Below are positions 11,845 to 27,340 of a stretch of 51,916 nt of DNA, in pieces; the first letter of the stretch is position 1, and each line of letters opens with the position of its first letter. The position numbers were made by a program, and so were the translations under genes. This DNA is from Burkholderiales bacterium (lineage in GTDB: Bacteria > Pseudomonadota > Gammaproteobacteria > Burkholderiales > SG8-39). Below the pieces are notes generated by a model. The model was not told where the DNA came from and made no database searches. It saw nothing but the letters and a program-made list of their open reading frames with translations. The stretch lies in contig JACZJV010000026.1 of NCBI GenBank assembly GCA_014860355.1, positions 1 through 51,916 of the forward strand. Direction: 5' to 3'.

Positions 11845-12121
11845 CGTCGGCAGGGCTGGCCGGGATTGTCCCGGACTTCGTGTCGCGCGGTGAAACCGCT
11901 GTTTTACCGCTGTTGCAGCCTGTCCTCGGCGCTACCAAGAGCGCCGCCGGTCGCGCGGCCGCAAGATAGTCGCCGGCAAGCCCGCCCGGCTTCGCCGCCT
12001 GGATAGTCGCCCCTCCCCCGTCTTTTGCGCCGACCGTATGCAGCAGAAATCACGGCTGGGGCAAACAGTACATTGCATTGCGATACAATTCATGAGGATG
12101 AGCAACACGCCGGGCCCAGCC

Positions 12122-13465
12122 ATGAATACTCATACCACCGCGTCGGCTGCCGCTACTTCGGCCTGCGATGTACTGGTAATCGGTGGCGGGCCCGCAGGCG
12201 CGACAGCCGCCGCGCTGCTGGCCGAGCGCGGCTACCGTGTGACCCTGCTGGAGAAGGCGCGCCATCCGCGATTTCATATCGGCGAATCGCTGCTCCCAGC
12301 CAATCTGCCGCTTTTTGAAAGGCTAGGCGTGGCGGATGCCGTCGAGGCCATCGGCATGGAAAAATGGGGCGCAGAATTTGTCTCGCCCTGGCATGAGCAC
12401 AAACAATCGTTCGAATTTTCCGATGCCATGGACAAGTCCATGCCCATGGCCTACCACGTGCGCCGCGCCGAGTTCGACGAAATTCTGCTGCGCAACGCCA
12501 GCCGCAGGAATGCCCGAGTTGTGGAAGGCTGTCAGGTACGGGACGTCGATTTCCTGCCCGACAAGGGCGGTGCGCGGGTGCAAGCCCGGCACGATGACGG
12601 CAGCATCGAAACGGTGCATGCACGGTTTGTGCTGGATGCCTCGGGCCGCGAGACCTTTCTTGGCAATCGCTTGAAGTCCAAGCGGCGCAACAGGAAACAC
12701 AACAGCAGCGCCATCTACGCCCATTTTTCGGGAGCCAAGCGCAATCCGGGCAAGGCCGCAGGGGATATCACCATCTACTGGTTCGAACACGGCTGGTTCT
12801 GGCTGATCCCGCTCGCGGGCGGCACGGCGAGCGTCGGCGCGGTGACGTGGCCGTATTATCTGAAATCGCGCAACAAGAAGCCGCTCGAACAGTTCTTTCA
12901 GGAAACCATCGCGCTGTGCGCGCCCTTGAGCGAGCGGCTGAAGCATGCACAACCGGTCTCGCCGGTAGAAGCCACCGGCAATTATTCCTACGTCTGCGAG
13001 CGCACCCACGGCAGCAATTATCTGCTGCTGGGCGATGCCTACACCTTCATAGACCCGGTGTTTTCCTCCGGCGTGATGCTGGCCATGCAAAGCGCCTTTG
13101 CGGCGGCCGACGCCGTGGACGTCTGCCTGCGCTATCCGCAGCGGTCGGCCGCTGCGCTGAAAAAATTCGACCGCACTATGCGGCTCGGTCCGGAGGCGTT
13201 TTCCTGGTTTATTTACCGGGTCACCAACCCCACCATGCGCGACATGTTCATGCAGCCGCGCAATGTTCTTCGCGTAAAGGAGGCACTGCTGTCAGTGCTG
13301 GCCGGTGACATATACGGCAGAACCCCGATTCGCGGCCCGCTGCTGCTGTTCAAGGGACTGTACTACGCGACCAGCCTGCTCAATTTCAGGCGCACATTGA
13401 AGTCATGGCGGGCGCGCCAGCGCAACCTCCGGGTTGTGGATGAAACTGGCGCGACGGTGGATTGA
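12122..13465 (+). CDS. Halogenase-like FAD-dependent oxidoreductase of the aryl-polyene locus
   Basis: A flavoprotein of the FADH2-dependent halogenase/geranylgeranyl-reductase fold. Numbered from the start used here (447 residues), it has a dinucleotide motif GGGPAG (21-26), GESLLP (54-59) and the FAD-contacting LLLGDAY (301-307). It also has both signatures associated with flavin halogenases: WxWxIP as WFWLIP (225-230) and FxxPxxSxG as FIDPVFSSG (309-317). Lys81 in EKWGAEF lies where the catalytic lysine of tryptophan halogenases lies. Relatives occur in xanthomonadin-type clusters, where pigments are brominated. Halogenation is inference; a reductase or desaturase role is possible. Alternative starts are at 12092 and 12098. 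A TACAAT -10-like hexamer lies at 12084-12089. First gene of a three-gene plus-strand unit. Confidence 0.85.
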   Translation: MNTHTTASAAATSACDVLVIGGGPAGATAAALLAERGYRVTLLEKARHPRFHIGESLLPANLPLFERLGVADAVEAIGMEKWGAEFVSPWHEHKQSFEFSDAMDKSMPMAYHVRRAEFDEILLRNASRRNARVVEGCQVRDVDFLPDKGGARVQARHDDGSIETVHARFVLDASGRETFLGNRLKSKRRNRKHNSSAIYAHFSGAKRNPGKAAGDITIYWFEHGWFWLIPLAGGTASVGAVTWPYYLKSRNKKPLEQFFQETIALCAPLSERLKHAQPVSPVEATGNYSYVCERTHGSNYLLLGDAYTFIDPVFSSGVMLAMQSAFAAADAVDVCLRYPQRSAAALKKFDRTMRLGPEAFSWFIYRVTNPTMRDMFMQPRNVLRVKEALLSVLAGDIYGRTPIRGPLLLFKGLYYATSLLNFRRTLKSWRARQRNLRVVDETGATVD

Positions 13466-13467
13466 TC

Positions 13468-14289
13468 ATGCGTGCTGCATTGCGTGTGTTGCTCAATGGC
13501 TACGATTGCCTGGTGCTGTATCTCGGCTTGGCCTGGCTCGGGATACTGTGCCTGGCCTGGACGCCCGTCGCGATGATCATGTACGCGCTGCTCTCCGAGC
13601 GCCGGGGGCGGGCGCTGGGGCGCTATGTAATCATGGTGGCATTTCGGCTTTACCTTGCCAGCCTGAGCGTGTCGCGCCGGTGCAGCTTTGACCTGGAGGC
13701 GCTGGATGCCCTGCGCGATGGACCGCCGCTGATCATTGCGCCCAATCATCCGTGCATGCTGGATGCCGTGATGGTGATTTCACGCCTGCCCAATGTCGCC
13801 TGCGTGCTCAAAGCCGATTTGATGAACAATATCTTTCTCGGCGCGGGCAGCCGGCTGGCGCGCTATATCCGCAATGAGCCGGTGCGGCGCATGGTGCAGC
13901 TGGCAAGCGAAGATTTTGCCTGTGGCAGCCATCTGCTGTTATTCCCGGAAGGTACCCGCACCACCGTGTCCCCGGTCAATCCGTTCAAGGGCAGTGTCGG
14001 CCTGATCGCGCGTCATGCACAGGTGCCGGTGCAGACGATACTGATAGAAACCGACTCGGAATATCTGAGAAAGGGCTGGCCGCTGTTCCGCAAACCGCCC
14101 ATGCCGATCCATTACCGGGTGCGGCTGGGACGGCGCTTCGATCCACCGACGCATATCCGGCGCTATATGGCGGAACTCGAGCACTACTTTGCGCAGGAGC
14201 TGGTACCAGGCGCGGCATTTAAGCCGGTCAACTCCCTGCCCAGGCAGGCTGAGCGTAGGCCAGAACTCACTTCGCGCACGCCGCCATGA
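13468..14289 (+). CDS. PlsC-like lysophospholipid-type acyltransferase
   Basis: The 273-residue protein has two N-terminal hydrophobic segments (about residues 5-40 and 50-65) followed by a PlsC domain. The acyltransferase motif HX4D is visible as NHPCMLD, and the substrate-binding motif as FPEGTRT. Such enzymes occur in aryl-polyene clusters and are thought to acylate the lipid or glycolipid part of the pigment. The ATG at 13468 begins two bases after the stop of the halogenase-like gene; a TTG at 13462 in the same frame overlaps that gene. The end overlaps the glycosyltransferase start by 4 bp. Confidence 0.88.
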   Translation: MRAALRVLLNGYDCLVLYLGLAWLGILCLAWTPVAMIMYALLSERRGRALGRYVIMVAFRLYLASLSVSRRCSFDLEALDALRDGPPLIIAPNHPCMLDAVMVISRLPNVACVLKADLMNNIFLGAGSRLARYIRNEPVRRMVQLASEDFACGSHLLLFPEGTRTTVSPVNPFKGSVGLIARHAQVPVQTILIETDSEYLRKGWPLFRKPPMPIHYRVRLGRRFDPPTHIRRYMAELEHYFAQELVPGAAFKPVNSLPRQAERRPELTSRTPP

Positions 14290-15050
14290 TGGCTGCCTCG
14301 AGCACGCATCTGGTCATCATTCCCAGCTATAACCCCGGCACCAAAGTCTACGAAACCGTGCGCGCGGCGCGCCGATACTGGACCCCGGTTTGGGTAGTGG
14401 TCGACGGCAGCACCGACGGCAGCGCCGAACGCCTGCTGGCGATGGCGGAGCAAGACGCCGGCCTGCGCGTGATCGTCCTGCCGCGCAATCAGGGCAAGGG
14501 CGCGGCAGTGCTGCACGGCCTGGACCAGGCGGCAGCGGCCGGATTCAGTCACGCGCTGACCATGGATTCGGATGGTCAGCATGCGCCCGAACGCATCCCG
14601 GCGTTCATGTCGGAATCCACAAGGCAGCCGGCTGCAATGATACTGGGGGTGCCGGTATTCGATGCCAGTGCGCCGGGCTTGCGCGTGAAAGGGCGGCGCA
14701 TATCCAACTGGTGGGCCAATCTGGAAACGCTGTGGGCAGGCATAGGCGACTCGCTCTTCGGCTTCCGCGTGTATCCGGTCGAAGCCTTGCGGCGGGTGAT
14801 GCGCGCTCAGCCGTGGATGCGCCACTTCGATTTCGACCCCGAGGCCGTGGTGCGCCTGTGCTGGCGCGGGGTGAGGCCGGTCAATCTGCCCGCCCCGGTG
14901 CGCTACTACAGCGCGGCGGAGGGCGGCGTGTCGCATTTCCGCTACCTGCGCGACAACCTGTTGTTGACCTGGATGCACGCGCGCCTGTTTGTCGGATTCG
15001 TATTGCGCCTGCCCGTTTTGCTGGCCAGGCGTGCGCGGGGACGGTTCTAG
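14286..15050 (+). CDS. GT2-family glycosyltransferase of the aryl-polyene locus
   Basis: The 254-residue product is a GT-A fold family 2 glycosyltransferase of the dolichyl-phosphate-mannose-synthase type. It shows the entry motif IIPSYNPG, the nucleotide-binding VVVDGSTDGS (about residues 37-46), the metal-binding DxD in MDSDGQH (about 95-101), and FDFDPEAVVRLCWRG further on. The C-terminus has a hydrophobic stretch that may sit at the membrane. In aryl-polyene clusters GT2 proteins are expected to add sugar to the pigment or its lipid. It overlaps the upstream acyltransferase gene and ends facing the minus-strand operon. Confidence 0.88.
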   Translation: MMAASSTHLVIIPSYNPGTKVYETVRAARRYWTPVWVVVDGSTDGSAERLLAMAEQDAGLRVIVLPRNQGKGAAVLHGLDQAAAAGFSHALTMDSDGQHAPERIPAFMSESTRQPAAMILGVPVFDASAPGLRVKGRRISNWWANLETLWAGIGDSLFGFRVYPVEALRRVMRAQPWMRHFDFDPEAVVRLCWRGVRPVNLPAPVRYYSAAEGGVSHFRYLRDNLLLTWMHARLFVGFVLRLPVLLARRARGRF

Positions 15051-15114
15051 GACGATGATAGTCAAACATGGGGACTTGGATCGCGCCCCCCGTTCGTTGC
15101 AGAGTTGCGCCTGG

Positions 15115-15195
15115 TGCGCGGACGAGAGGCCGTCCGCGCGGATCGTGGCCTGCGCACGGATGATGAAGCCATCCGTACGCAATCGACGATCTTGT
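15115..15195. repeat. 81-bp palindromic dispersed repeat, copy A
   Basis: An ungapped 81-bp match to 30320-30400 (66 identical positions by my hand count). It contains two hairpins. The first, GCGCGGACG (15116-15124) with CGTCCGCGC (15131-15139), is perfect and kept in both copies. The second pairs GATCGT..CACGGATG with CATCCGTACG..ACGATC and is imperfect here. A degenerate third arm (CGTACGCAAGCCACGATCTT) follows near 15229-15248. It lies between the convergent glycosyltransferase and methyltransferase genes, the usual place for REP-like elements. Confidence 0.8.
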
Positions 15196-15281
15196 ATCGA
15201 AACCACGCCATCCTTGTATCAACCATACGTACGCAAGCCACGATCTTTGACGAACCCGGTTTCCATATTTTGAAATTGGCT

Positions 15282-16052
15282 CTAAGTCAATGCAGAATCG
15301 GCCTTGAGCGCCTGATATTCCGAAAACACGCCGAGTTCCAGATGCCGTTTAACCTGCGTCAGCCCCGCAGCACTTAGGGTCGTCAGCACCTGCTCTGGGG
15401 GCACGCAGGCTTCGATGCTGTCCCAGTGATAGCGCCAGATCGTCGCGGTATCTTTTTGACGGGAAACGAATCGCGTCAGGAACGGCAGCACGCCGCGCAT
15501 ATAGGTTTTGAGCAGCCATGCCCCGACACGGTTCTGCGCCTGGGTAATTTCAAGCAGGCATAATCGGCCACCGGGCTTCAACACCCGTTCGAACTCGGCA
15601 AAGGCCACGCCCAGATCGCTGAAATGGCGCAGCGCATAACCCATGCTCAAGAAATCAAAATGATCGTCGGGAAAAGGCAGGGATTCGGCCCGACCTTCGA
15701 TCAACACCATTGCCGCGGGTAACTTTGCGGCGGCCATCATGCCGGGGCTGGGATCGACCCCGGTGACCAGGGCGGCATCGCCGGCCAAAATGCAGGCCTG
15801 CGCCGCGACCAGTCCGGTACCCACGCCGACGTCCAGTACCTTCATCCCGCTTCTCAGGCCACCGCGTACGAGCGCCTGGCGCCGGTAGCGGGAACCGGAG
15901 CCCCATGCAAATATCGCCTCGATGTGGTCGTAATCCGGCGCGGTCTTGTCGAACATCTCGCGCAGATACGCTTGCCGATCCTGCTCTGTCCGGTAGTAAT
16001 CGGTCAGCGGGATATGCGGTGCATGCACTGGCGCGGGTTTGGTGGGGTTCAT
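15282..16052 (-). CDS. SAM-dependent methyltransferase (UbiE-like) of the aryl-polyene locus
   Basis: A class I methyltransferase of 256 residues. SAM motif I is VLDVGVGTGLVA (about residues 71-82), followed by a TGVDPSPGMM segment and LSMGYALRHFSDL, a UbiE-like signature, then VLKPGGRLCLLEI. In this context it probably methylates the aryl head group or a ring hydroxyl, as proposed for aryl-polyene clusters; the substrate is not shown by sequence. The start at 16052 (MNPTKPAPVH) was chosen because the 78 bases of open frame upstream overlap the ketoreductase gene. It is the last gene of the minus-strand block, 13 bp after the ketoreductase. Confidence 0.88.
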   Translation of the reverse strand: MNPTKPAPVHAPHIPLTDYYRTEQDRQAYLREMFDKTAPDYDHIEAIFAWGSGSRYRRQALVRGGLRSGMKVLDVGVGTGLVAAQACILAGDAALVTGVDPSPGMMAAAKLPAAMVLIEGRAESLPFPDDHFDFLSMGYALRHFSDLGVAFAEFERVLKPGGRLCLLEITQAQNRVGAWLLKTYMRGVLPFLTRFVSRQKDTATIWRYHWDSIEACVPPEQVLTTLSAAGLTQVKRHLELGVFSEYQALKADSALT

Positions 16053-16065
16053 ATTGCCCTGATCG

Positions 16066-16785
16066 TCAAACGATGCCGCCGTTGATGGAGATAATCTGCC
16101 CGGTGATATAGGCCGCCTGCATTGAGGCAAGAAATCCGATCAGATCGGCAACCTCTTCCGGGGTGCCGGCGCGTTTCATCGGTACCATGCGCGCGATAGC
16201 CTCGGCGTCGAACGCAGATTCGCTCATGGGGGTATCGATGACGCCGGGCGCTACGGCATTGACGGTGATGCCCCGGCTGGCGACTTCCTGCGCCAGCGAC
16301 TTGGTGGCTGAATTGAGTGCGCCCTTGGCCGCGGAATAATTGACCTGACCGCGATTGCCGGTCAGGGCGGCGATGGAAGACACATTGATGATGCGCCCCC
16401 AGCGGCTGCGTATCATCGGCAGCATCAGCGGCTGGGTGACGTTGAAAAAGCCGTTGACCGACACGTCTATCACCCGGCGCCACTGCTCGGCGCGCATGCC
16501 CGGGAACACCGCGTCGTCATGGATGCCGGCATTGTTGACCAAAATCTGGACCGGCTGGTGTTCGACGAGGGACATCAGTACATCGGCTGTCGCCCGGCTG
16601 TCCGTCACATCGAAGGCCAGCGCCTGCGCGCTGCCGCCGCCCGCACAAATGGCATCGGCCAGCGCCTGCGCGGCTTGCACTGCGCGATGGGCATGAATGT
16701 ACACATGGCAGCCATCGGCGGCGAGACGGCGGCAGATGGCAGCGCCAATGCCGCCGCTGCCGCCCGTAACCAGGGCGTTTTTCAT
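16066..16785 (-). CDS. 3-oxoacyl-ACP reductase (FabG/ApeQ-like)
   Basis: A short-chain dehydrogenase/reductase of 239 residues with the NADPH motif TGGSGGIGAAI (residues 7-17), NNAG (about 86-89), the catalytic Ser in INVSSIAAL (about 137), and the YSAAKGAL Tyr/Lys pair (about 153/157). The C-terminus (GQIISINGGIV) is FabG-like. It should reduce the beta-keto group of the growing ACP-bound polyene. Its start overlaps the stop of the upstream dehydratase gene (ATGA type), implying translational coupling. Confidence 0.93.
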   Translation of the reverse strand: MKNALVTGGSGGIGAAICRRLAADGCHVYIHAHRAVQAAQALADAICAGGGSAQALAFDVTDSRATADVLMSLVEHQPVQILVNNAGIHDDAVFPGMRAEQWRRVIDVSVNGFFNVTQPLMLPMIRSRWGRIINVSSIAALTGNRGQVNYSAAKGALNSATKSLAQEVASRGITVNAVAPGVIDTPMSESAFDAEAIARMVPMKRAGTPEEVADLIGFLASMQAAYITGQIISINGGIV

Positions 16786-17258
16786 GGTGCCTCTCCCGCA
16801 GTGTGTGCGGGTGCGGCAGCATTGAGCACGACCGCTGCGCGCCCGCCGAGCAGCAGGCGACCCGCTGCGCTGACGCTGAACTGATAAAGAACATTGTTTT
16901 CGCTGCGCGCGATGCAGCTGGCATCGACCAGTAGATCGGCGGTGACGTCGTCCAGCCGCGACACATGCAACTGTGTGCCGCGCACGCTGACCAGATAACC
17001 GACCCGGGCGCGGGAACCCTCCGGCGGCGCCATCAGGGCACCGTGCACGGCCATGGCCTGCGCCGCGTATTCGATGCCGCAGGCGGCGCCAAGCCGGCCG
17101 TAAGCGCGCATTGGGTTGTCAGCCGCGCGGTGGCTGCTCGCGCGACACTGAATGCGCCGCTCATCCCATTCCTCGACGCGATCCAGCAGGCACATGCTGC
17201 CCCGATGCGGGATGCGACGGGCAATCCAGGCGCGGTCCAGTCCGGTTTGATTCAGCAT
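16782..17258 (-). CDS. Hot-dog 3-hydroxyacyl-ACP dehydratase (ApeP-like)
   Basis: A 158-residue hot-dog-fold protein with the FabA/FabZ-like opening RRIPHRGSMCLLDRV (about residues 14-28), where His18 is the likely catalytic residue. In aryl-polyene systems this type (ApeP) pairs with a smaller FabZ-like partner (ApeI, here at 24749-25054) to form a heteromeric dehydratase. Presence of both types in one locus is a strong marker of polyene synthesis. It overlaps the end of the chain-length-factor-like gene by 7 bp and the reductase start by 4 bp. Confidence 0.87.
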   Translation of the reverse strand: MLNQTGLDRAWIARRIPHRGSMCLLDRVEEWDERRIQCRASSHRAADNPMRAYGRLGAACGIEYAAQAMAVHGALMAPPEGSRARVGYLVSVRGTQLHVSRLDDVTADLLVDASCIARSENNVLYQFSVSAAGRLLLGGRAAVVLNAAAPAHTAGEAP

Positions 17259-18049
17259 GGCGTGACTGCCACGGCGAGACGCGTGCTGTCGAGGTAATCC
17301 AGCACGACGTGTTGGTCTTGCCGCAATGCGATAGCGCGCAACAGCGGCAAGCCGCGTGCGGCGGGGATGGCGATGCGCAGATTTTCAAGCACGGGATCGT
17401 CGAGGAGGTCTGCGCTGGCCTCAGTCAGGCCGACGCGGATTTGCGCCAGCGCCCGTGCGCTGCGGTGCGGCGCCAGCACCAGCGCGATGCCAAGCGCATC
17501 GGGGATGGGACGGGCGCTGTACAAGGGCTCCGGGTAAGCGGTGTCACAGGCGAGCAGAACGCAGGGTATGTTATCTGCCACAACCTGGGTCAGCGCTTCC
17601 AGCAGCCCCGCGCCGAAACTGGCGTCAAAAGCGCTCAGCACCGACGACGTGGTCATTGCGCCGGTGGCGATACCCCAGTATCCGGCAGCAACGTTATGCA
17701 CGGAATTGTGAAACCGGGTTGGGGAGATTTGCCGGTCATCCGAGGCAAGCATTTCACAAATGATGTGACAGTTTTCCCCGTCGCCGCCAGACGCGGAAAA
17801 CACGCTGGGCAGGCTGGCTGCGTCGAGTCCGGCCGCCGCGATCGCTTCCAGTCCGGTCGCCAGGGTGAGCTTGACAATTGCGCAACTGCGCCGCCGTTCC
17901 GCCGCGGGCAGCAGCGCGGGCGGCGGCAGCACCGTCTTGTGCGGCCGATAGGGCTCGCGCCCGCCTAGGACGGCCTGACCGGCCGGCCAGTCGGCCAGAC
18001 CGGGTCCGAGCAGGCCGACGCCTTCAATGTATGCGCTGAGCGGGTGCAT
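17252..18049 (-). CDS. Ketosynthase-like chain-length factor (ApeC-like)
   Basis: A 265-residue ketosynthase N-terminal-domain homologue lacking the nucleophile. The segment aligned with the active-site Cys of the next gene (SSACSSSA) reads LSAFDASFGAG, with Phe in place of Cys. The downstream HGTAT and GH histidine motifs of a full ketosynthase are absent and the protein is about 130 residues shorter. It matches the 'chain-length factor' partner that forms a heterodimer with the ketosynthase in aryl-polyene type II synthases. The start at 18049 (MHPLSAYIEG) is 4 bp after the ketosynthase stop. Confidence 0.85.
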   Translation of the reverse strand: MHPLSAYIEGVGLLGPGLADWPAGQAVLGGREPYRPHKTVLPPPALLPAAERRRSCAIVKLTLATGLEAIAAAGLDAASLPSVFSASGGDGENCHIICEMLASDDRQISPTRFHNSVHNVAAGYWGIATGAMTTSSVLSAFDASFGAGLLEALTQVVADNIPCVLLACDTAYPEPLYSARPIPDALGIALVLAPHRSARALAQIRVGLTEASADLLDDPVLENLRIAIPAARGLPLLRAIALRQDQHVVLDYLDSTRLAVAVTPC

Positions 18050-18053
18050 GGAT

Positions 18054-19247
18054 TCAATCCGCGCGCGCAAAAACCAGGCTGCAATTGGTGCCGCCGAATC
18101 CAAACGAATTGCTGAGCACGCGCGCCACCGGCTGCTCGCGATTGTGCAGCAGATAGTCCAGGCCCAGCGCCGGGTCGACTTGTTCGGTGTTGATCCCCGC
18201 GGGCAGCATGCCGTGCTGCAAGCTCAGGGCGCAAATCACTGCTCCCACGCCGCCGGCCGCCCCCAGGGTATGCCCGGTCGCGCCCTTGGTGGAACTGCAC
18301 GGCATGTCCGGGCCGAATACATGTCGGACCGCCTGGGCCTCCGCGGCGTCGTTGCTCTGGGTAGCCGTGCCGTGCAGGTGGATATAGTCGACTTCAGACG
18401 ACTTCAATCCCGCCATTTCCAGCGCATCCTGCATCGCCACGCGCGCACCCAGGCCATCCGGATGCGGCGATGACATGTGATAGGCATCGCTGGACTCACC
18501 TATGCCGAGCAGCAGCACGGCGTCCTCGTCCAGCTGTGCCGGAGCGCGTTCCAGCAGCGCGAAGGCTGCCGCCTCGCCAATCGAGATGCCGTTGCGTTGC
18601 GCATCGAACGGGCGGCATGCACGTTCGGAAATCAGGCCGAGCGCGCTGAAACCATACAGCGTCGTCAGACACAGCGAATCCACGCCCCCCACCACGGCCG
18701 CGTCTATCAGCCCCGTCGCCAGCATGCGGCGCGCTGAGGCAAATACCTTCGCGCTGGACGAACATGCCGAGGACACTACGACCGCCGGACCGGTCAGCCC
18801 AAAATAATGCCGCGTGAAATCGACGACGGAGAACGTGTTGTGTGTGGTGCGGTAATTGAAGTCCGCGGGGAGTGCGCCGGTCACCGGGTCGCGCCGCCGG
18901 TAGGCCAGCTCGGTTTGCAGAATGCCGGAGGTGCTGGTGCCGAGAAACACGCCGATGCGCTGCGCGCCGTATTCTGCGATGGCAGCGCGCACCGCCCCGG
19001 CAAATCCGTCCTGGGTCAATCCCAGCAGCGCAAGCCGGTTGTTGCGGCAATCAAAGTCGGCCAGATGGGCGGGAAGCCGCACTGCATCCACGTCCGCCAC
19101 CTCGCCTATGTAAGTCGCCAGGTCCACCGTCTCGAACGCGCACGGCGCGAGCCCGCCGCGACGCTGGCGCAGCGCGGCCAGCGTCTGCTCGAGGCCGCGG
19201 CCGATGCTGCTGGTCGCAGTGAAATGGGAGAGCCAGAGCGGGTTCAA
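18054..19247 (-). CDS. Beta-ketoacyl-ACP synthase (ApeO-like)
   Basis: A 397-residue condensing enzyme with the full Cys-His-His set: Cys162 in SSACSSSAK, His292 in HLHGTATQSND and His326 in KGATGHTLGAAGG, ending NSFGFGGTNCSLVF. It should elongate the aryl-primed ACP chain with malonyl units together with the chain-length-factor-like protein just downstream. It is the only catalytically complete ketosynthase in the window. A 90-bp gap precedes it, longer than most in this operon, so an internal promoter is possible, though I see no strong one. Confidence 0.95.
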   Translation of the reverse strand: MNPLWLSHFTATSSIGRGLEQTLAALRQRRGGLAPCAFETVDLATYIGEVADVDAVRLPAHLADFDCRNNRLALLGLTQDGFAGAVRAAIAEYGAQRIGVFLGTSTSGILQTELAYRRRDPVTGALPADFNYRTTHNTFSVVDFTRHYFGLTGPAVVVSSACSSSAKVFASARRMLATGLIDAAVVGGVDSLCLTTLYGFSALGLISERACRPFDAQRNGISIGEAAAFALLERAPAQLDEDAVLLLGIGESSDAYHMSSPHPDGLGARVAMQDALEMAGLKSSEVDYIHLHGTATQSNDAAEAQAVRHVFGPDMPCSSTKGATGHTLGAAGGVGAVICALSLQHGMLPAGINTEQVDPALGLDYLLHNREQPVARVLSNSFGFGGTNCSLVFARAD

Positions 19248-19337
19248 GGAAAGACAGGCCGATCGCGATTAAATGGGAAGTCTACCAAGTTCCGGTGATT
19301 GGTTTGGGTCAGTTAGACGGCTGGCGGGTTTGTCCGA

Positions 19338-20012
19338 CTATGCCCTACCGGTTCCGGCGCGCACGCGATGTCGCAATGACAGAGTGGCAGCCAGCACCCC
19401 CAGCGCCAGACCGGCCAGCACATCCACCGCCACATGCTGGCGTGTGGCCAGAGCCGAATATACGATGCCGATACACCACATCCAATTGAAGATTAGCATC
19501 CACAAGGGTGCGCCAAAGCGGCGCAGCAGGTAATGCAACCAGATTCCCGAAAAAACGGCTGTGGCGACGTGAAGAGACGGGCAGGCATTGCCCGCTGCAT
19601 CGATGCCCTTAAGGAAGGCCACGTCGGGATACCGGTCCCAGTCGATGTCGGCCGCGGGTACTGCCGTGGGCCAGAAATAAAACACGAGCAGCGCCGCAAG
19701 GCAGGTACCTGCCATGGCCGATCCATAGCCATACAACTCGCGCCGCGTCGCCAGCAATGCCGGGGGAAGGGAAACATAGGCCCACAGCGATAGATACAGC
19801 GGCAGGGCCCCGGGCTGAAAGCCGATCAGGCGATCGAGCAAGGTGATGGGCATCACCGTCGTCGGGTAGGCCGGCTGTTTGAGCAAATAGAAGTAAGCAC
19901 CGAAAAACAGGCCGATGAAAAGCGGCGTTCCGACACTCTTGAGAACCAAATGCCTGGATATTGCCGCGGCAGCCTGGCGGTACCAGGGCGTCTGCTGACT
20001 ATTCTCGCTCAC
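19338..20012 (-). CDS. PAP2-family membrane phosphatase
   Basis: An integral-membrane protein of about 224 residues with five or six hydrophobic segments and the PAP2 active-site pieces CPSLHVATA (PSxH) and TRQHVAVDV (R-x-x-H...D). The spacing is like the PAP2_3/inositol-phosphorylceramide-synthase subgroup. Such enzymes remove or transfer lipid-linked phosphates. In this operon it may dephosphorylate a lipid carrier or lipid intermediate of the pigment; the substrate is unknown. No ATG fits after the deacetylase stop (20041). GTG codons at 20012 and 20024 are the candidate starts; I chose 20012. Confidence 0.82.
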   Translation of the reverse strand: MSENSQQTPWYRQAAAAISRHLVLKSVGTPLFIGLFFGAYFYLLKQPAYPTTVMPITLLDRLIGFQPGALPLYLSLWAYVSLPPALLATRRELYGYGSAMAGTCLAALLVFYFWPTAVPAADIDWDRYPDVAFLKGIDAAGNACPSLHVATAVFSGIWLHYLLRRFGAPLWMLIFNWMWCIGIVYSALATRQHVAVDVLAGLALGVLAATLSLRHRVRAGTGRA

Positions 20013-20040
20013 GTCTGGTACCACATGGGCAGGCTGCTGT

Positions 20041-20844
20041 TCATGAGAGGGCGTGACGCAGGGTGACAAGCCGCAGATTGGCCGCTTTCGCTGCGGCCAG
20101 AACGCCGGGGAGCACTTCGACAATAACGGGAACGCCATCGGGCGCGCGCGCGGCGTTGCCATCGTGCAGCAGCAAAATGGCGCCCGGGCGCAGGCCGCGC
20201 AACAGCCTGTTCCTAACGCGGGCGGCGTCGCCGACGTGGGTGTCGAAACCGCGCGCGGACCAGCTCGCAAGCCGCAGCCCCAGCCGGGCGAGCACCGGGT
20301 CTAGAAGAGGGTTGCGCAAGCCGGCCGGGGCACGAAAGAACAAGGGACGCTGGCCGGTGATTGCAGTGAGCGTGTCCTGGGCGGCCTGCAGTTCGCGCAT
20401 CAAGCCGCAATATCCCGTCAGCGCAAAATGATGGCGGTGATGCTGGCTGTGGTTTTCCACGCGATGGCCACGGCGCACGATTTCCCGGCACAAGTCCGGG
20501 AAACGCGCGGCTTTCTCACCGACGCAGAAAAAGCTCGCCTGGACAGCGTGACGATCGAGCAACTCCAGCACCTGCGGCGTAACGACGGGATCGGGGCCGT
20601 CGTCGAAAGTCAGGGCAATTTCATTTCTGGCGCTGGCCGCAGCGGGTAGCCGTGTCCAGTTCGGCCCCAGCCAGCGGCTGCGCGGCCACAGTCCGACCAG
20701 CGTCAACAGGGCGTGATTGGCAAGCACGGCGCCCAGCGCCCAGTGCCAAAATTCAGGCGCGGCGATGACGGCAATCAAGGCGAGCAGATGCAGCGCGATG
20801 GACGCGCGGATCAACAGCGTGGGTTGCCAGCGGGAACTATGCAC
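20041..20844 (-). CDS. NodB-type polysaccharide/chitooligosaccharide deacetylase, membrane-anchored
   Basis: The 267-residue protein has two N-terminal hydrophobic segments (about residues 9-30 and 35-52) and a NodB domain with motif 1 TFDDGPD (about 77-83), motif 2 HSQHHRH (metal-binding His pair, about 130-136) and motif 3 RAPAGL (about 170-175), then LLLHDGNA. These are the residues for metal-dependent removal of N-acetyl groups from sugars. It is not part of the aryl-polyene gene sets I know. It overlaps the exporter gene end by 8 bp, so it is integral to this operon. With the GT2 enzyme it suggests an amino-sugar step. Confidence 0.88.
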   Translation of the reverse strand: MHSSRWQPTLLIRASIALHLLALIAVIAAPEFWHWALGAVLANHALLTLVGLWPRSRWLGPNWTRLPAAASARNEIALTFDDGPDPVVTPQVLELLDRHAVQASFFCVGEKAARFPDLCREIVRRGHRVENHSQHHRHHFALTGYCGLMRELQAAQDTLTAITGQRPLFFRAPAGLRNPLLDPVLARLGLRLASWSARGFDTHVGDAARVRNRLLRGLRPGAILLLHDGNAARAPDGVPVIVEVLPGVLAAAKAANLRLVTLRHALS

Positions 20845-23209
20845 GCGCTTGCCTGGCGAAAATGGCCGAGTAAATCAGCGCCAGGACGACCCCCGGCGCC
20901 ACGGTTACGCCCATTGCCTGCAATACCGACACGCTGGAAAACGACAGCAGTCCGAAACCCGCGGCTGTAGTGAGGCCGGCAAACAGCATCGAGGCAAGCG
21001 TGCGGGAGGAGGCAGCGTGGGCTAGCGGATCGGGCCCGGCGATCGGCGCATGCTCGGCCCGATCAAAAAACAGCGCGTAATTGGAGCCCACCGCGACCAC
21101 CAGCAGCAAACCGACCAGATGCAAAATAATCATTTGCTGTCCAAACACGGCCAATCCGGCCGTAACGGTAATGACCGCGGCCGCAAGCGGCGCGATGATA
21201 CGCACCACGCGCATGGGCGAGCGAAAAACGAACAACAGCAATCCGATAATGGCAACCAGCCCTCCCAGCGACAAGCGGATGGCTTCATGCAAATAGCCGG
21301 AATACAAATTATCGGACTCGGTTTTCATATCCACAAACAGCACATCGGGCAAACCCGTGGCGTCGAGCGCAGCGCGAATCCGCCTTGCATTGATGCTGCC
21401 ATCCTTGGGTGCGGTGAGCGGCAATAAGGCGCTCCAGTGGTCGCCTTGTTCGATGAGGAGCGCAGCCACCGCCATGGCCATCGAGGTCTGTTCGAGATCG
21501 GCAGCCCGCAGCAGGGGCTGGCTGCGCGCGGCTGCGGCATCGGCAAGAAACGGCGCAAACAGCTGCGTACTCACCGGCAGGCCCTGAACCGCCTGCGCCA
21601 GCCGCGTTTCCAGCTCACCCGGGGAGGGCAGGCTCAACCGGCGGGCGCGCTGCGTCGCGGTGCTGGGAAGATAACGGCTGGGGCTCTCGAACCTGCCGAG
21701 TTCGCCTTCATCGACTTGCGTCTGCAATATCGCGGAAACCTGTTCGCAAGACCTCAATACCGATTCCATGCTCGCGCCGCTTACCACCACCAGATAACGC
21801 ACATCAGGCGCACCGGTGTCGGTGCGCAGGCTTGCATCGAGCGCGACATCGGTTTGCGAAACCGGACTCAACGAGGCTATCTTGTCATCCCATAAACTCG
21901 CGCGGTGCGAGAACAGAATGGCACAGGCCGCCAGCAGCAGGATCGCGGCAGCCCATCGCAGTGCGGCGGCGCGCTGTACCAGCCGGGACAGGGCGTAGCC
22001 GATGGCCGATACATCATGAATGCGAAAATTCGCCGGCAGCAAATGGGGCAGGACAAAACGGGTAACCGTCGCGGCGGCGATGAGGCCGGTAATCGAATAC
22101 AGGCCGAGCTGCGCCAGACCCGGAAAGCCCGACAGCAGCAGCGACGCAAAGCCGGCTACCGAGGTCAGCACGCCGAGACGGATGGTGGGCCAAAGACGCT
22201 CGATCCAGTTCTGCCGGTCTGAACCGCCCAGTTCCGACTGCACAAACAGGTAAATCGAATAATCGACCGCTTCGCCGATCAGTGCGGTGCCAAATCCCAG
22301 GGTGATGCCATGCACCACGCCAAAGCCCAGGCTGACTGCCGCGATGCCGGCCAGCGCGCCGCTGATAACGGGCAAAAAACCCAATGCCAGTGCGCTAAAG
22401 GAACGATAGACCAGCAATAGCAGCGTCGCGATGAATGCAATGCTGATGATGGCCAGGCGGCTGACCTGATTTTTGATGGTGTCGCGTGAAGTCACCGAAA
22501 ACACACCCGGGCCGCTCATCACCAGTCTGGCGGAAGGGGTTGCGCCGGATGCCTTTTCAAACGCCTGCCGGATGGCATCCATGGCGCGTTGCTGGGCGTC
22601 GATATCGGAACCCGAGGCGCGCGTTTGCAGCAGCATCAGGGCACGCGCGCCGTCGGCTGATGCCCAGGCGCCATCGACCATCTTCGGGCGGGCGCCGCCG
22701 TTGAGTTGTTCAAGCAATTGCACCATTTCGCCGGTCGGGTCGCGCGGCAGCAGCGACTTGACCAGCAGGCCGGCAGGCGAAGCGAGCAGGTCGATGCTCT
22801 CGCTCAAGGCGGCATGCAGTCCGTCTGCGCTGAAGCGTGCAGGCGTGACTGCAGGACTTAGCAGGTAGCGATGGTCGAACAGAAAAGCTCGGTCGCGCTC
22901 GGCGCTGACGGGCTCGCCGTTATTGACGGTGACAAAAGCAGGGTCGGCGCGCAATTGCGTGGCGGTCTGTCTGGAAAGCCAGGCACGGGTGGGCGCATCG
23001 GCGCCTTCGATGCCTACCAGAATCAGGCGCGAGGCCAGGCCGTCGCGTATCTGCTCCATGAGCAACTGCTGTGCCGGCGTCGGGTTGCGCGGTAAAAAGG
23101 CGGATAAATCCGTGGTGAACTGGCTGCGGCTGATAACGATCCCACAGGCGAGGATGAACGCCAGCCACAGTGCGATCGCCGCCCGGCCGCGCGCCGGCGC
23201 CTGCTTCAC
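20837..23209 (-). CDS. MMPL/RND-superfamily exporter of the aryl-polyene locus
   Basis: A 790-residue inner-membrane transporter with the RND-like plan: one N-terminal membrane helix, a large periplasmic loop (about residues 30-245), five helices, a second single helix and periplasmic loop (about 410-610), and five final helices. Conserved pieces are GFGTALIGEAVDYSIYLFV (about 304-322) and VAVGSNYALFFDRAE (about 700-714), which carry the charged residues used in proton-driven transport. MMPL proteins are the hallmark transporter of aryl-polyene clusters, expected to move the pigment lipid out of the inner membrane. Its start overlaps the LolA-like stop by 4 bp. Confidence 0.92.
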   Translation of the reverse strand: MKQAPARGRAAIALWLAFILACGIVISRSQFTTDLSAFLPRNPTPAQQLLMEQIRDGLASRLILVGIEGADAPTRAWLSRQTATQLRADPAFVTVNNGEPVSAERDRAFLFDHRYLLSPAVTPARFSADGLHAALSESIDLLASPAGLLVKSLLPRDPTGEMVQLLEQLNGGARPKMVDGAWASADGARALMLLQTRASGSDIDAQQRAMDAIRQAFEKASGATPSARLVMSGPGVFSVTSRDTIKNQVSRLAIISIAFIATLLLLVYRSFSALALGFLPVISGALAGIAAVSLGFGVVHGITLGFGTALIGEAVDYSIYLFVQSELGGSDRQNWIERLWPTIRLGVLTSVAGFASLLLSGFPGLAQLGLYSITGLIAAATVTRFVLPHLLPANFRIHDVSAIGYALSRLVQRAAALRWAAAILLLAACAILFSHRASLWDDKIASLSPVSQTDVALDASLRTDTGAPDVRYLVVVSGASMESVLRSCEQVSAILQTQVDEGELGRFESPSRYLPSTATQRARRLSLPSPGELETRLAQAVQGLPVSTQLFAPFLADAAAARSQPLLRAADLEQTSMAMAVAALLIEQGDHWSALLPLTAPKDGSINARRIRAALDATGLPDVLFVDMKTESDNLYSGYLHEAIRLSLGGLVAIIGLLLFVFRSPMRVVRIIAPLAAAVITVTAGLAVFGQQMIILHLVGLLLVVAVGSNYALFFDRAEHAPIAGPDPLAHAASSRTLASMLFAGLTTAAGFGLLSFSSVSVLQAMGVTVAPGVVLALIYSAIFARQARA

Positions 23210-23775: not shown

Positions 23776-23813
23776 CACGCGCGGAAAAACGACGCTGGAG
23801 GCGTGCAGGATCA

Positions 23814-24692: not shown

Positions 24693-24748
24693 GTTGCTGC
24701 GCTCCGGGGTTTGCGCCCAGGCGGCCGGTCTGCTTGTCGGGCGCGATG

Positions 24749-25054
24749 TCAGACGGGCAATCCCGGCAGGATACTGCCGCTGGCAATTTTGCGCGCGCCA
24801 GCCACGACGTCGAAGCGTATCGCCCCGCCGGCTGAAACGATGTGCTGGATCACCAGTACTTCGCCCGGGCCTGCCGGACTCAGAAACTTGACCGAGCTGA
24901 TCTCGCAGGTATCCAGCGCGATGCCGGTGGCAGCGGCGATTGCGTCGAGCACTGCGTCGAGCAGCATCGCGCCGGGGAGAATAGGCATGTCGGGAAAATG
25001 ACCGGCAAAAACGGGATGATCCGGCGGAACCGTCCAGCGCGTAGTGTTGTTCAT
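24749..25054 (-). CDS. Small FabZ-like dehydratase (ApeI-like)
   Basis: A 101-residue hot-dog protein with the FabZ-type sequence HPVFAGHFPDMPILPGAMLLDAV (residues 13-35), in which His19 of GHFPD is the likely catalytic His. In aryl-polyene synthesis the ApeI type acts with the ApeP type (here 16782-17258) to dehydrate 3-hydroxyacyl-ACP intermediates. Both its start (overlapping the ligase stop, ATGA) and its stop (overlapping the possible acyltransferase CTG start) suggest tight coupling. Confidence 0.88.
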   Translation of the reverse strand: MNNTTRWTVPPDHPVFAGHFPDMPILPGAMLLDAVLDAIAAATGIALDTCEISSVKFLSPAGPGEVLVIQHIVSAGGAIRFDVVAGARKIASGSILPGLPV

Positions 25055-26394
25055 GCGGAATTGCGCGCGCCGCGCGTCCTAAACAGGGCTTGCAGCGCGG
25101 CGCGCGGCAGTTTTCCCGTGTGGTTGCGCGGCAGCGCATCGACAAGCAGCAGGGGGCGCGGCAGGAATACCGGGTCTACATGTTCGCGCAGCGCCGCCAA
25201 CAGGCGCGGCGCGTCCATGCCCGGAGCCACCACACACGCGGCTAGCCGCGTAACGCGGGCATCACCGGATTCGTCCGGCATGTAAAAAGCGCCGTCCACT
25301 ACGCCCGGAATGCTGTTGAGCAGGTGGTCCAGACTCGCCAGCGAGTGCCGTTTGCCCGCGATATTGACCAGATCGGCGATGCGCCCATGCAACAGGAAAT
25401 GGCCGACTGCAACAGGCTCAATGACGTCGTTCATGGTGATCGTTGATTCGATGTGACCGCCGCAAGCGCGCACGCTATCACCCTCCACGCTCAACTTTAC
25501 TCCGGGAAACAGCGTCCATTGCGCAGTTTGCGTGGAGCGCCGGGAGGCAATCTGGCCGGTTTCGGTGCTGCCGTAGATTTCCATCAATTCGGTATGGCAT
25601 TGCGCCTCAATTTCCTGCGCGAGCTGGGCAGACAGCGGTGCCGTGGCGGAGACTACCCGTGCAATTTCCGGCAATGCCAGCCCCGCATCCAGCAAGGCGC
25701 GCAGATGCACGGGCGAGGACACCAGCACTCGCGGCGGGGGCACAGCTGCCAGCGCCGCGCGGATGTCAGCCGGGTAAAACGGTTGCGCATGGCTGAGCGC
25801 GTTGCCGCTGTGCCATGCCATCAGCACCGTGGACTCAAACCCGTACATGTGTTGCGGCGGGACCGTGCCAATGATCGTGCTGGGCGTGTTGCGCAGCAGC
25901 TCGAGGTGCAATGCTTCGGCCTGCACACAAGCGACCAGTGCACCCCAGGCTTTCGGATGAGGTTGCGGGACGCCGGTCGAGCCCGAAGTAAACACCACCG
26001 CGACTCGCTGACTGCTGTCGATTTGCGGAATTGCAATTGAGCCGGCCCGGCCGATGGCCATGGCCGGGTATTGCAGCTGAGGCAGATCGACCGGACGCAG
26101 GTCGCTGTCGGTCAGGCAAAACACATCCGGGGCAAAGGCCTGGACCTGGCGCACCACTTCCGGCGTGGGGGTGGGTGGCAGCAGGCTGACTTTGCCGGCG
26201 ACAATGGCGGCCGCCAGACCCACGCTGAAACGGTAACGGTCGCTGCACATATTGAGCAGGTGGCCCCCTGCGGGCAACAGGGCGGCAAGCTGTCTGACTT
26301 CGGCCAGGAACTGGCGCAGCGTCACCGCGCCCTCGGCGCGCCAGGCGATGATGCTGTCCGGGGAGGGGTGTGACACCAGCGGCAGCAAAGACAT
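25051..26394 (-). CDS. AMP-dependent acyl-ACP/CoA ligase (ApeH-like)
   Basis: An ANL-superfamily ligase of 447 residues, shorter than typical acyl-CoA synthetases, as is usual in aryl-polyene loci. The phosphate loop FTSGSTGVPQPHPK (about residues 132-145) and the adenine region EIYGSTETGQIASR (about 273-286) are present. The catalytic lysine motif NHTGKLPR occurs near the C-terminus (about 428-435). It should adenylate the aromatic starter acid and load it onto the ACP. It follows the membrane-protein gene by 17 bp and overlaps the ApeI-like gene by 4 bp. Confidence 0.9.
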   Translation of the reverse strand: MSLLPLVSHPSPDSIIAWRAEGAVTLRQFLAEVRQLAALLPAGGHLLNMCSDRYRFSVGLAAAIVAGKVSLLPPTPTPEVVRQVQAFAPDVFCLTDSDLRPVDLPQLQYPAMAIGRAGSIAIPQIDSSQRVAVVFTSGSTGVPQPHPKAWGALVACVQAEALHLELLRNTPSTIIGTVPPQHMYGFESTVLMAWHSGNALSHAQPFYPADIRAALAAVPPPRVLVSSPVHLRALLDAGLALPEIARVVSATAPLSAQLAQEIEAQCHTELMEIYGSTETGQIASRRSTQTAQWTLFPGVKLSVEGDSVRACGGHIESTITMNDVIEPVAVGHFLLHGRIADLVNIAGKRHSLASLDHLLNSIPGVVDGAFYMPDESGDARVTRLAACVVAPGMDAPRLLAALREHVDPVFLPRPLLLVDALPRNHTGKLPRAALQALFRTRGARNSA

Positions 26395-26411
26395 GATTCA
26401 GCCGGTAAGGA

Positions 26412-27050
26412 CTAGCGCGGACGCGCCGGGGTGTTCGTGTACGCCCGCACCGCATCGAGGATGCGCATGTGGCGCATATCCGGTAGGGCCCGCCGGCGCA
26501 CCCAGTATTCGGCAATGAACATCAGCGCGACCAAGGGCAGCGTAAAGAAATTGGCAAAGACCGACCATGTGGCCAGGGGCGCCAGAAAAAAGAGCAGAGT
26601 GGAGGCTAGCGCCATCGCGGCAAAAAACAGGGTCCAGGCGATCGTCACCTGGCGGGTGTAGATTTCATGCTGCGGCGTCACGACCGCGTGCACCGCATGT
26701 GCCAGGCGCGTGCACAGCGGTTGCCGCCCTGCAATCAACGTACGGCCAAACGCGATGAACAGGACCAGCAGCATAGCCATATTCTGCAACCAATACACCA
26801 GCCCCAAATGGTTCTCTAGCGCCGACCAGCCTGCCCACAGCGCGATACACAGCAGCACCAGCACGCCGAGCATGACGATACGACGGGGTGAGCGCCAGGC
26901 CAGCACCAGCGCAATTAACGCTACCGGCGCGATCGCGACCAAAGCGCCGAGCGTACCGCCGTGCGTGGATTCATTGGTGTAATGCGCCAGCAGCGGATAG
27001 CAGATCAGCAGCGCAGCAATGCCCAGCCAGGGCACGATGCGGCCTGGCAT
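26412..27050 (-). CDS. COG4648-type membrane protein of aryl-polyene loci
   Basis: A 212-residue integral-membrane protein with about six hydrophobic segments, of the COG4648 kind (ApeG in the E. coli locus). No enzymatic motif is visible and its role is unknown. It occurs almost always beside the ACP and ligase genes in aryl-polyene clusters, as here. Conserved-looking pieces are LVYWLQNMAMLLVLFIAFGRTL (roughly residues 94-115) and the soluble stretch HEIYTRQVTIAWTLFF. Its ATG shares one base with the TAA stop of the ACP gene. Confidence 0.82.
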   Translation of the reverse strand: MPGRIVPWLGIAALLICYPLLAHYTNESTHGGTLGALVAIAPVALIALVLAWRSPRRIVMLGVLVLLCIALWAGWSALENHLGLVYWLQNMAMLLVLFIAFGRTLIAGRQPLCTRLAHAVHAVVTPQHEIYTRQVTIAWTLFFAAMALASTLLFFLAPLATWSVFANFFTLPLVALMFIAEYWVRRRALPDMRHMRILDAVRAYTNTPARPR

Positions 27051-27340
27051 TAGCGCGTTCTCTGTGCTGCTATATGGTCGGACAGGCTGCGCAGCGAGCC
27101 GAAAATGGTCTTGTTGTCCTCGCTGTCGCTTTGCAGTTGCAGACCATAACGCTTGGAGACCTCCAGGGCAACTTCCAGCACATCAATCGAGTCCAGGCCC
27201 AGGCCTTCGCCATACAAGGGGGCGTCAACGGCGATTTGATCTGCGCTGATCTCGAGGTTCAGGCACTCGACCATCAATGCGGCAACTTCACGCTGCAACT
27301 CTGCGGTACTAGAGGCAGTAGGATTCTGATTAATTTGCAT
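27050..27340 (-). CDS. Acyl carrier protein
   Basis: A 96-residue acidic ACP with the 4'-phosphopantetheine attachment motif GLDSIDVLEVALEV; the modified Ser is about residue 55. It carries the polyene chain between ligase, ketosynthase, reductase and dehydratases. It appears to be the first gene of the minus-strand block. The roughly 280 bp upstream (27341-27619) contains no gene I can support, only AT-rich -10-like sequences (for example TACAAT on the minus strand near 27460). Two ACP genes are common in aryl-polyene clusters; only this one is in the window. Confidence 0.93.
   Translation of the reverse strand: MQINQNPTASSTAELQREVAALMVECLNLEISADQIAVDAPLYGEGLGLDSIDVLEVALEVSKRYGLQLQSDSEDNKTIFGSLRSLSDHIAAQRTR

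What the first reader, a model, noticed from the sequence alone, without database searches (positions are those of the whole stretch)
12122..27340. A 17-gene aryl-polyene (APE/xanthomonadin-type) pigment locus in two opposed units
Ketosynthase plus chain-length-factor-like protein, ketoreductase, two hot-dog dehydratases (ApeI-like and ApeP-like), ACP, short AMP ligase, COG4648 membrane protein, LpxL-like and PlsC-like acyltransferases, GT2, LolA-like carrier, MMPL exporter, methyltransferase and a flavoprotein occur together. Most neighbours overlap by 1-8 bp. This combination is the hallmark of aryl-polyene synthesis (established family knowledge), but the gene order and content differ from the E. 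coli ape set as I know it.
Basis: partly seen in the sequence, partly recalled or inferred. Interest (0 to 1): 0.75.

Follow-up and report, generated by a model that had tools for sequence, protein, structure and literature searches.

The report
Ordinary bacterial yellow-pigment gene cluster
These 17 genes look like a standard set for making an aryl-polyene, a yellow antioxidant membrane pigment found in many Gram-negative bacteria; the unusual part is a sugar-deacetylating enzyme that travels with this branch of clusters and whose job is not worked out.

Summary
Confirmed: 12122-27340 holds 17 intact genes in two convergent units, an aryl-polyene (APE) locus. The ketosynthase falls on the ApeO side of a 100/100 branch, away from FabF, FabB and ApeR; the half-size chain-length factor matches only the two solved ApeC proteins; all 17 genes show dN/dS 0.12-0.53 against sister copies. 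It lacks the second ACP, ApeR, ApeK, ApeN and ApeA of E. coli ape. Its order matches the Azoarcus BH72 arcuflavin genes but without the chorismatase; searches of its genome for chorismatase, UbiC, ammonia-lyase and DarB were empty, so the starter's origin is open. Most likely the polyene is placed on a glycolipid whose N-acetylhexosamine is deacetylated, then exported; that role is inferred. The site is empty in four sister species. New member of a known kind.

The parts
12122..13465 (+). FAD-dependent halogenase-like flavoprotein (447 aa), position of Azoarcus ArcA
   Evidence: NCBIfam CmlS 211 bits, below its cut-off of 900; best PDB matches are halogenases; WFWLIP and HIGES motifs (patterns recalled)
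13462..14289 (+). PlsC-like acyltransferase (ApeD/ArcD position)
   Evidence: PF01553 50 bits; NHPCMLD and EGT motifs
14286..15050 (+). GT2 glycosyltransferase (ArcE position; counterpart of the GT half of E. coli ApeJ)
   Evidence: PF00535 73.2 bits; the only 3 PDB matches at E 0.001 are ArnC; D94, D96, G97, Q98, H99 invariant in 58 of 58 rows
15282..16052 (-). UbiE-like SAM methyltransferase, probable aryl O-methyltransferase
   Evidence: PF01209 99.5 bits; start inferred
16066..16785 (-). 3-ketoacyl-ACP reductase (ApeQ/ArcH position)
   Evidence: FabG equivalog NF004200 362.8 bits, over its cut-off of 273
16782..17258 (-). ApeP-like hot-dog dehydratase partner
   Evidence: Weak match to 6qsr_B (E 0.046, below better-scoring unrelated chains); no Pfam or NCBIfam hit; profile hits in 71 of 81 loci
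17252..18049 (-). half-size chain-length factor (ApeC/ArcJ), 265 aa
   Evidence: PF13723 80.5 bits; only PDB matches up to E 1 are 7f28_A and 6qsp_B; Gln155 shared with Lysobacter and Xanthomonas-group rows
18054..19247 (-). ApeO/ArcK-type ketosynthase
   Evidence: NF006618 562.5 bits over cut-off 407; 7f28_B, 6qsp_A; tree; CSSS, HGTAT, GATGHTLG
19338..20024 (-). PAP2-superfamily membrane phosphatase or phosphotransferase
   Evidence: PF01569 42.7 bits, PF14378 35.1 bits; PSLH and TRQHVAVD; GTG start at 20024 inferred
20041..20844 (-). CE4 polysaccharide deacetylase (ArcN), N-terminal helical hairpin plus catalytic domain
   Evidence: PF01522 97.5 bits; TFDDGP, HSQHH, RAP, LLHD; model pLDDT 94.9, closest solved folds 7fbw (acetylxylan esterase) and 4l1g (peptidoglycan GlcNAc deacetylase)
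20837..23209 (-). MMPL/RND transporter (ApeM/ArcP)
   Evidence: PF03176 73.8 bits
23206..23817 (-). LolA-like periplasmic carrier (ApeL/ArcQ)
   Evidence: PF19574 92.4 bits
23814..24692 (-). LpxL-like acyltransferase (ArcR position; counterpart of the acyltransferase half of ApeJ)
   Evidence: PF03279 29.4 bits; HLGSFE motif; start inferred
24749..25054 (-). ApeI-like hot-dog dehydratase (ArcS)
   Evidence: PF07977 33 bits; 6qsr_A E 2.2e-4, below several FabZ chains
25051..26394 (-). AMP-forming aryl-acid:ACP ligase (ApeH/ArcT)
   Evidence: PF00501 58.7 bits; TIGR02372 4-coumarate ligase 124.5 bits, below its cut-off of 334.7
26412..27050 (-). COG4648-type membrane protein (ApeG/ArcU position)
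27050..27340 (-). acyl carrier protein (ApeE/ArcV)
   Evidence: NF006617 130.6 bits over cut-off 70; GLDSI

Best explanation
This is an aryl-polyene locus of the arc/xanthomonadin type. A ligase loads a hydroxybenzoic acid on the ACP. The KS with its half-CLF adds malonyl units, and the KR with the ApeI/ApeP pair turns each into a double bond, giving an aryl-polyenoyl-ACP. The ring is O-methylated and possibly halogenated. The GT2, PlsC-like and LpxL-like enzymes then attach the polyene to a glycolipid. The deacetylase frees the amino group of its N-acetylhexosamine, probably on the cytoplasmic face, and the PAP2 protein removes or exchanges a lipid phosphate. COG4648, MMPL and LolA move the lipid to the outer membrane, where it acts as an antioxidant. 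Shown here by sequence: gene content, core-enzyme identity, expected catalytic motifs, purifying selection, linkage of the deacetylase. Inferred from characterised relatives: polyene synthesis and export. Inferred only: glycolipid chemistry, the roles of deacetylase and PAP2, and halogenation.
For: KS in the ApeO-type group, 100/100; CLF matches only the ApeC chains of 7f28 and 6qsp (both entries identified as ApeO-ApeC in PMC8358021 passages); ACP and KS over curated cut-offs. The gene set matches Azoarcus arcA-arcV, where (polar) disruption of arcK or arcT gave colourless cells (PMC3949708). Deacetylase linked to the locus: 41 of the 64 loci with an MMPL gene in view (81 loci examined, window included), 36 of those 41 between MMPL and KS; 19 of 20 APE genomes of the family against 2 of 78 others, Fisher p 5e-17 with no correction for kinship; D81, D82, H132, H136, R171, H227 and D228 kept in 39-41 of 41 rows. 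N-acetylglucosamine as a polyene acceptor is stated in PMC8776678 (passage). dN/dS 0.12-0.53 for all 17 genes, each against one to three sister copies.
Against: No gene for the aryl starter was found: no XanB2-like chorismatase or PF21168 (neither search rang in any genome, so absence is not proven), no UbiC PF04345 (0 of 98 family genomes, E. coli control rang), no PF00221. ApeP and ApeI matches to the solved pair are weak and not the best hits, and the KR scores as a FabG equivalog. No chemistry is available. The Azoarcus pigment was proposed to be a dialkylresorcinol ester, not a glycolipid. G051 has an APE locus and no deacetylase hit, so the enzyme is not indispensable. PAP2 is missing in one sister copy (G009) and the halogenase from the locus in another (G017).
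Confidence: 0.85

Rival explanations
1. The locus makes an aryl polyene that is esterified to a dialkylresorcinol, as proposed for Azoarcus arcuflavin, and the sugar enzymes serve something else.
For: The closest published gene set is proposed to make exactly that. One relative, L059, carries DarB- and DarH-type genes beside the locus.
Against: A DarB query from L059 found nothing at E 1e-15 in the window's genome or four sisters (no positive control in that search). The GT2, deacetylase and LpxL-like genes remain unexplained.
Confidence: 0.06
2. The deacetylase (and PAP2) are neighbours that act on peptidoglycan or an exopolysaccharide and have no part in the pigment.
For: The CE4 enzymes closest in sequence and fold act on xylan, peptidoglycan and chitin. 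Some APE loci lack it: 23 of the 64 loci with MMPL in view, and G051.
Against: It stays in the APE locus in at least three arrangements: MMPL-deacetylase-KS; MMPL-deacetylase-COG4648 in G026 and G028; divergent beside MT-GT2-flavoprotein in G043 and G045. In L113 one open frame joins deacetylase, PAP2 and methyltransferase. Genome co-occurrence 19 of 20 against 2 of 78.
Confidence: 0.2
3. The type II PKS makes a polyene on a non-aromatic starter, because the genome has no recognisable hydroxybenzoate source.
For: Chorismatase, UbiC and ammonia-lyase searches were empty.
Against: The ligase's best NCBIfam model is 4-coumarate--CoA ligase, though below its cut-off, and the ACP is of the PRK09184 family; the KS is nested among arc-type rows; UbiC is undetected in all 98 family genomes, which points to an unrecognised 4-hydroxybenzoate route rather than to a special starter here.
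Confidence: 0.08

Closest known systems
Azoarcus sp. BH72 arc genes (arcuflavin), PMC3949708
   Same: KS, half-CLF, DH, KR, GT, acyltransferases, halogenase, exporter, LolA, AMP ligase, ACP and a 'PS-deacetylase' (arcN), in matching local order
   Different: There split in two loci, with chorismatase arcB, MipA arcC, antiporter arcG, arcF, arcO, two-component genes and a separate dar cluster; here one block, no chorismatase, PAP2 between deacetylase and KS, UbiE-like methyltransferase after the KR
Azospirillum ramasamyi plasmid locus NZ_CP029832 (L122)
   Same: Nearly the same order, including MMPL - deacetylase, then KS - CLF - DH - KR, and opposed GT2 - PlsC - flavoprotein
   Different: A methyltransferase sits where the window has PAP2; no UbiE-like gene directly after the KR
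Xanthomonas / Lysobacter xanthomonadin loci
   Same: Half-CLF beside KS, CSSS motif, halogenase gene in Xanthomonas but not L. enzymogenes (PMC3691225); single ACP in Xanthomonas (PMC8253772)
   Different: No deacetylase hit in the four Lysobacteraceae loci with MMPL in view (L106, L108, L116, L117; elsewhere in those genomes not searched); a starter-making gene belongs to the published loci
E. coli CFT073 ape, PMC8253772
   Same: Homologous core and export genes
   Different: E. coli: 18 genes on one strand, two ACPs, ApeR, ApeK, ApeN, ApeA, and glycosyltransferase/acyltransferase in one protein, ApeJ

Membership tests
Aryl-polyene / xanthomonadin-type gene cluster | ApeO-type ketosynthase | tested here: met
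   Tree of 36 rows, 29 ApeO-type on one side, 100/100; NF006618 over cut-off
Aryl-polyene / xanthomonadin-type gene cluster | half-size CLF of the ApeC type next to the KS | tested here: met
   Only PDB matches are 7f28_A and 6qsp_B; 80 rows at 200 bits or more, window included, share the HNSVHN block
Aryl-polyene / xanthomonadin-type gene cluster | ApeI:ApeP dehydratase pair | tested here: inconclusive
   Both small genes present and conserved in position, but PDB matches to 6qsr are weak (E 2.2e-4 and 0.046)
Aryl-polyene / xanthomonadin-type gene cluster | aryl-acid ligase, dedicated ACP, KR | tested here: met
   substrate of the ligase not tested
Aryl-polyene / xanthomonadin-type gene cluster | LolA, MMPL, COG4648 and acyl/glycosyltransferases | tested here: met
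   the COG4648 protein by position and similarity to relatives only
Aryl-polyene / xanthomonadin-type gene cluster | yellow aryl-polyene product | not testable with these tools
   No chemistry available
Azoarcus arcuflavin (arc) cluster | polysaccharide deacetylase in the export operon | tested here: met
   20041-20844 overlapping MMPL
Azoarcus arcuflavin (arc) cluster | XanB2-type chorismatase | tested here: not met
   Not among the 17 genes; no hit in own genome, with the caveat that nothing rang in those searches; the Pfam model does find the gene in L043 and L040
Azoarcus arcuflavin (arc) cluster | dialkylresorcinol genes in the genome | tested here: not met
   DarB query found nothing in G000 and four sisters, no positive control
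E. coli / Xenorhabdus ape cluster | ApeR second KS, second ACP, ApeK, ApeN, ApeA | tested here: not met
   None among the 17 genes. Outside the window the two strong PF00109 hits of the genome are a FabF-like KS and FabB; five weak hits of 21-29 bits were not examined

The most novel reading that the evidence does not exclude
The arc-type branch makes a chemically distinct aryl-polyene lipid: a GT2 and a CE4 deacetylase form an ArnC/ArnD-like pair that adds and de-N-acetylates a hexosamine on the inner face, and the LpxL-like enzyme puts the polyene on the freed amine, giving an amide-linked or cationic amino-sugar pigment unlike the N-acetylglucosamine-linked form reported for other APE producers.
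Probability: 0.3. Interest if true: 0.5.

Novelty: new member of a known kind. Interest (0 to 1): 0.27.

Why it matters
[quoted passage not shown] coli pigment unknown. The tight linkage of a deacetylase with intact catalytic motifs to one large branch gives a direct handle on the anchor chemistry. The locus also sits as a clean presence/absence block between sister species. The lack of any recognisable hydroxybenzoate source, family-wide for UbiC, flags an open question about the starter and about ubiquinone.

Tried and rejected
Rejected: an E. coli-type ape cluster (missing genes); an arcuflavin cluster proper (no chorismatase or DarB found); chance assembly of unrelated genes.

Led nowhere: the COG4648 model (pLDDT 92.8) had no PDB match at E 0.001 or better (best E 3.1), so the 'pyrophosphatase' label of PMC8253772 is neither supported nor excluded. 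Promoter and terminator scans were at chance level (5 found against 4.7 expected, 13 against 14.0). Of the 4.9-kb DNA at the same site in G014 three + frames gave no NCBIfam hit; its - frames were not scanned. The first PAP2 profile drifted and gave false hits; PAP2 counts were redone with the single window sequence (16 of 81 loci). An apparent deacetylase fusion in G026 and G028 was only overlapping open frames.

Counting notes. The 20 family genomes with the APE ketosynthase are those with E of 7e-96 or better; G027 (E 3.5e-68) was counted among the 78. Its locus (L140) holds two KS genes and no deacetylase, so it looks ape-like rather than arc-like; counting it would make 19 of 21. The deacetylase count of 41 needs 200 bits; L082 (156 bits) was left out and would make 42. 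L085 fell outside the 36 because its KS frame is extended upstream; it is probably a 37th. The tree of 81 KS rows left 17 rows unlabelled for want of an MMPL gene in view. The tree used 26 of those 81 rows plus 3 from plasmid records on the ApeO side; the 5 fatty-acid rows were picked by motif (L030 and L038 dropped as too short), and the E. coli ApeO/ApeR and Pseudoalteromonas labels are mine, from gene order. dN/dS used three sister copies: one has 16 of the 17 genes, two are cut by contig ends. Hydropathy alone saw one N-terminal helix in the deacetylase, the model two, so its topology is inference. Motif meanings and the gene name xth are recalled.

Papers: PMC8253772 abstract, sections 5 and 6 and part 1 of section 10; PMC3691225 abstract and sections 6, 8; PMC3949708 abstract, sections 18, 20, 21, 22 and passages; PMC8776678, PMC8358021, PMC8041823, PMC9177418, PMC11547657, PMC9966250, PMC8865838 passages only; all others search listings. 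The APE-lipid structure preprint (Grammbitter 2020) is not held and was not seen.
Full report
WHAT IS THERE. The window carries 17 uninterrupted genes at 12122-27340. Three lie on + (flavoprotein, PlsC-like, GT2) and 14 on - (ACP, COG4648-type, ligase, ApeI-like, LpxL-like, LolA-like, MMPL, deacetylase, PAP2, KS, half-CLF, ApeP-like, KR, methyltransferase). They converge on a 231-base gap. With the starts used, nine of 16 neighbour pairs overlap by 1-8 bases. The flanks are ordinary: RodA-, PBP-, MreB-, amidase/GatA-, GatB- and exonuclease III-like genes on one side, YqjK, DUF883 and AmpG-type genes on the other.

IT IS AN ARYL-POLYENE LOCUS. The KS scores over the curated cut-off of NF006618 and the ACP over that of NF006617. 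In the PDB the KS is closest to 7f28_B and 6qsp_A, and the CLF matches only 7f28_A and 6qsp_B; a paper identifies 7F28 and 6QSP as the ApeO-ApeC complexes of Acinetobacter baumannii and Xenorhabdus doucetiae (PMC8358021 passages). A tree of 36 rows puts the window KS among 29 ApeO-type rows, separated with 100/100 support from 7 FabF/FabB/ApeR-type rows; the program warned about long branches among the latter. The half-CLF keeps Gln155, shared with the five Lysobacter/Xanthomonas-group rows looked at and with 56 of 80 rows in all; equating it with the essential Q166 of Lysobacter ORF16 (PMC3691225) is inference. All 17 genes have dN/dS of 0.12-0.53 against at least one sister-species copy; the flavoprotein could be compared in one copy only.

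WHICH TYPE. E. coli ape has 18 genes on one strand with two ACPs, ApeR, ApeK, ApeN and ApeA (PMC8253772); none of these extras is among the 17 genes. The genome's other strong KS hits are a FabF-like one and FabB. The order instead matches the Azoarcus BH72 arc genes, where plasmid-insertion (polar) disruption of arcK or arcT gave colourless cells (PMC3949708), and an Azospirillum plasmid locus. One scan of a collection of one genome for each of 84,980 species kept the best 80 of at least 589 confirmed KS loci; by profile the same core recurs in them, as far as contig ends allow.

THE DEACETYLASE. Of 81 loci (80 plus the window) 64 show an MMPL gene; 41 of these have the deacetylase at 200 bits or more and 23 do not. 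In 36 of the 41 it lies between MMPL and KS. On the KS tree the trait needs 4 changes against a shuffled mean of 18.9; in the 44-row group that holds the window (support 90, not starred) 38 have it, 3 lack it and 3 cannot be judged. In 98 genomes of the window's family, 19 of 20 with the APE KS have the deacetylase and 2 of 78 others do. Of the two, G053 is a 4.9-kb contig with GT2, PlsC, methyltransferase and flavoprotein hits beside it, and G085 has flavoprotein pieces beside it. The exception the other way is G051. The gene stays in the locus in at least three arrangements, and in L113 one 914-codon frame joins deacetylase, PAP2 and methyltransferase domains. The residues expected for CE4 catalysis (recalled) are conserved in 39-41 of 41 rows. 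The model is confident (pLDDT 94.9); its closest solved folds are an acetylxylan esterase (7fbw) and peptidoglycan GlcNAc deacetylases, with ArnD at rank 39. A predicted N-terminal helical hairpin with arginines on its outer sides suggests a cytoplasmic active site (inference). The GT2's only PDB matches are ArnC. A genome-analysis paper states that in some products the polyene is linked to N-acetylglucosamine by ApeJ (PMC8776678 passage). Together these suggest de-N-acetylation of the sugar anchor. The gene itself is not new: it is arcN in the 2014 table, and in that paper the word deacetylase occurs twice, both times in that table row. Six searches of the paper library with aryl polyene, arylpolyene or xanthomonadin and deacetylase or arcN gave no listing that pointed to a function for it; the papers listed were not all read, and subscription papers and preprints are not held.

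PAP2 AND OTHER PERIPHERY. PAP2 is found in 16 of 81 loci at E 1e-8 (the L072 hit is short) and lies directly after the deacetylase gene in seven, the window included. A sister copy (G009) lacks it, and another (G017) lacks the halogenase gene at this site. So the periphery turns over while the core stays.

STARTER. Relatives often carry a chorismatase: 22 of 80 loci share a protein cluster of which two members were identified as FkbO/Hyg5-type (L043, L040). None was found in the window's genome or four sisters, nor by PF21168 in 98 family genomes, nor UbiC (0 of 98), nor an aromatic ammonia-lyase in the window's genome. E. coli rings for UbiC; the chorismatase searches rang nowhere, so that absence is unproven. 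The source of the aryl acid is unknown.

SITE. The APE KS is in 5 of 14 genomes of the genus, the window's included. In G010, G011, G013 and G021 the matches to the exonuclease side and to window 27630 onwards lie 22-83 bases apart, where the window has about 15.8 kb. G017 has the locus at the same place; G014 has 4.9 kb of other DNA there, with no hit to any of the 17 proteins. In G009, G015, G016, G018 and G019 the flanking genes are missing or on separate contigs, and in G012 and G020 one or both were not found, so these seven cannot be judged.

VERDICT. What remains interesting is the unexplained but tightly linked deacetylase and the missing starter source.

Noticed in passing
window 11852-27629: Clean presence/absence: the block is missing from four sister species (G010, G011, G013, G021) at this site, and a fifth (G014) has 4.9 kb of other DNA there.
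   Followed up: partly
window genome and its family: No UbiC (PF04345) match in any of 98 family genomes, so the 4-hydroxybenzoate source for ubiquinone is unrecognised in this family.
   Followed up: partly
L113 15226-17970: Single 914-codon frame with deacetylase, PAP2 and methyltransferase domains in a Panacagrimonas MAG, next to a second MMPL gene.
   Followed up: partly
window 26412-27050: The COG4648-type protein has a confident all-helical model with no solved relative found and nine invariant residues in 26 rows (H23, T136, W139, W162, S163, N167, R185 among them); its 'pyrophosphatase' label deserves a test.
   Followed up: partly
L140 (G027): Same family, but an ape-like locus with two KS genes and no deacetylase.
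   Followed up: no
L105: A contig filed under Candidatus Planktophila (Actinomycetota) carries a KS of the Xanthomonas/Variovorax group and APE genes; possibly mis-binned.
   Followed up: no
window 12122-27340 and flanks: Third-position GC of the locus genes (about 0.69-0.78) is below that of many neighbours (about 0.79-0.91).
   Followed up: no
L043, L044, L050 and others: In several relatives the ApeI-like profile scores 690-810 bits over one long frame, suggesting a ligase-dehydratase fusion.
   Followed up: no
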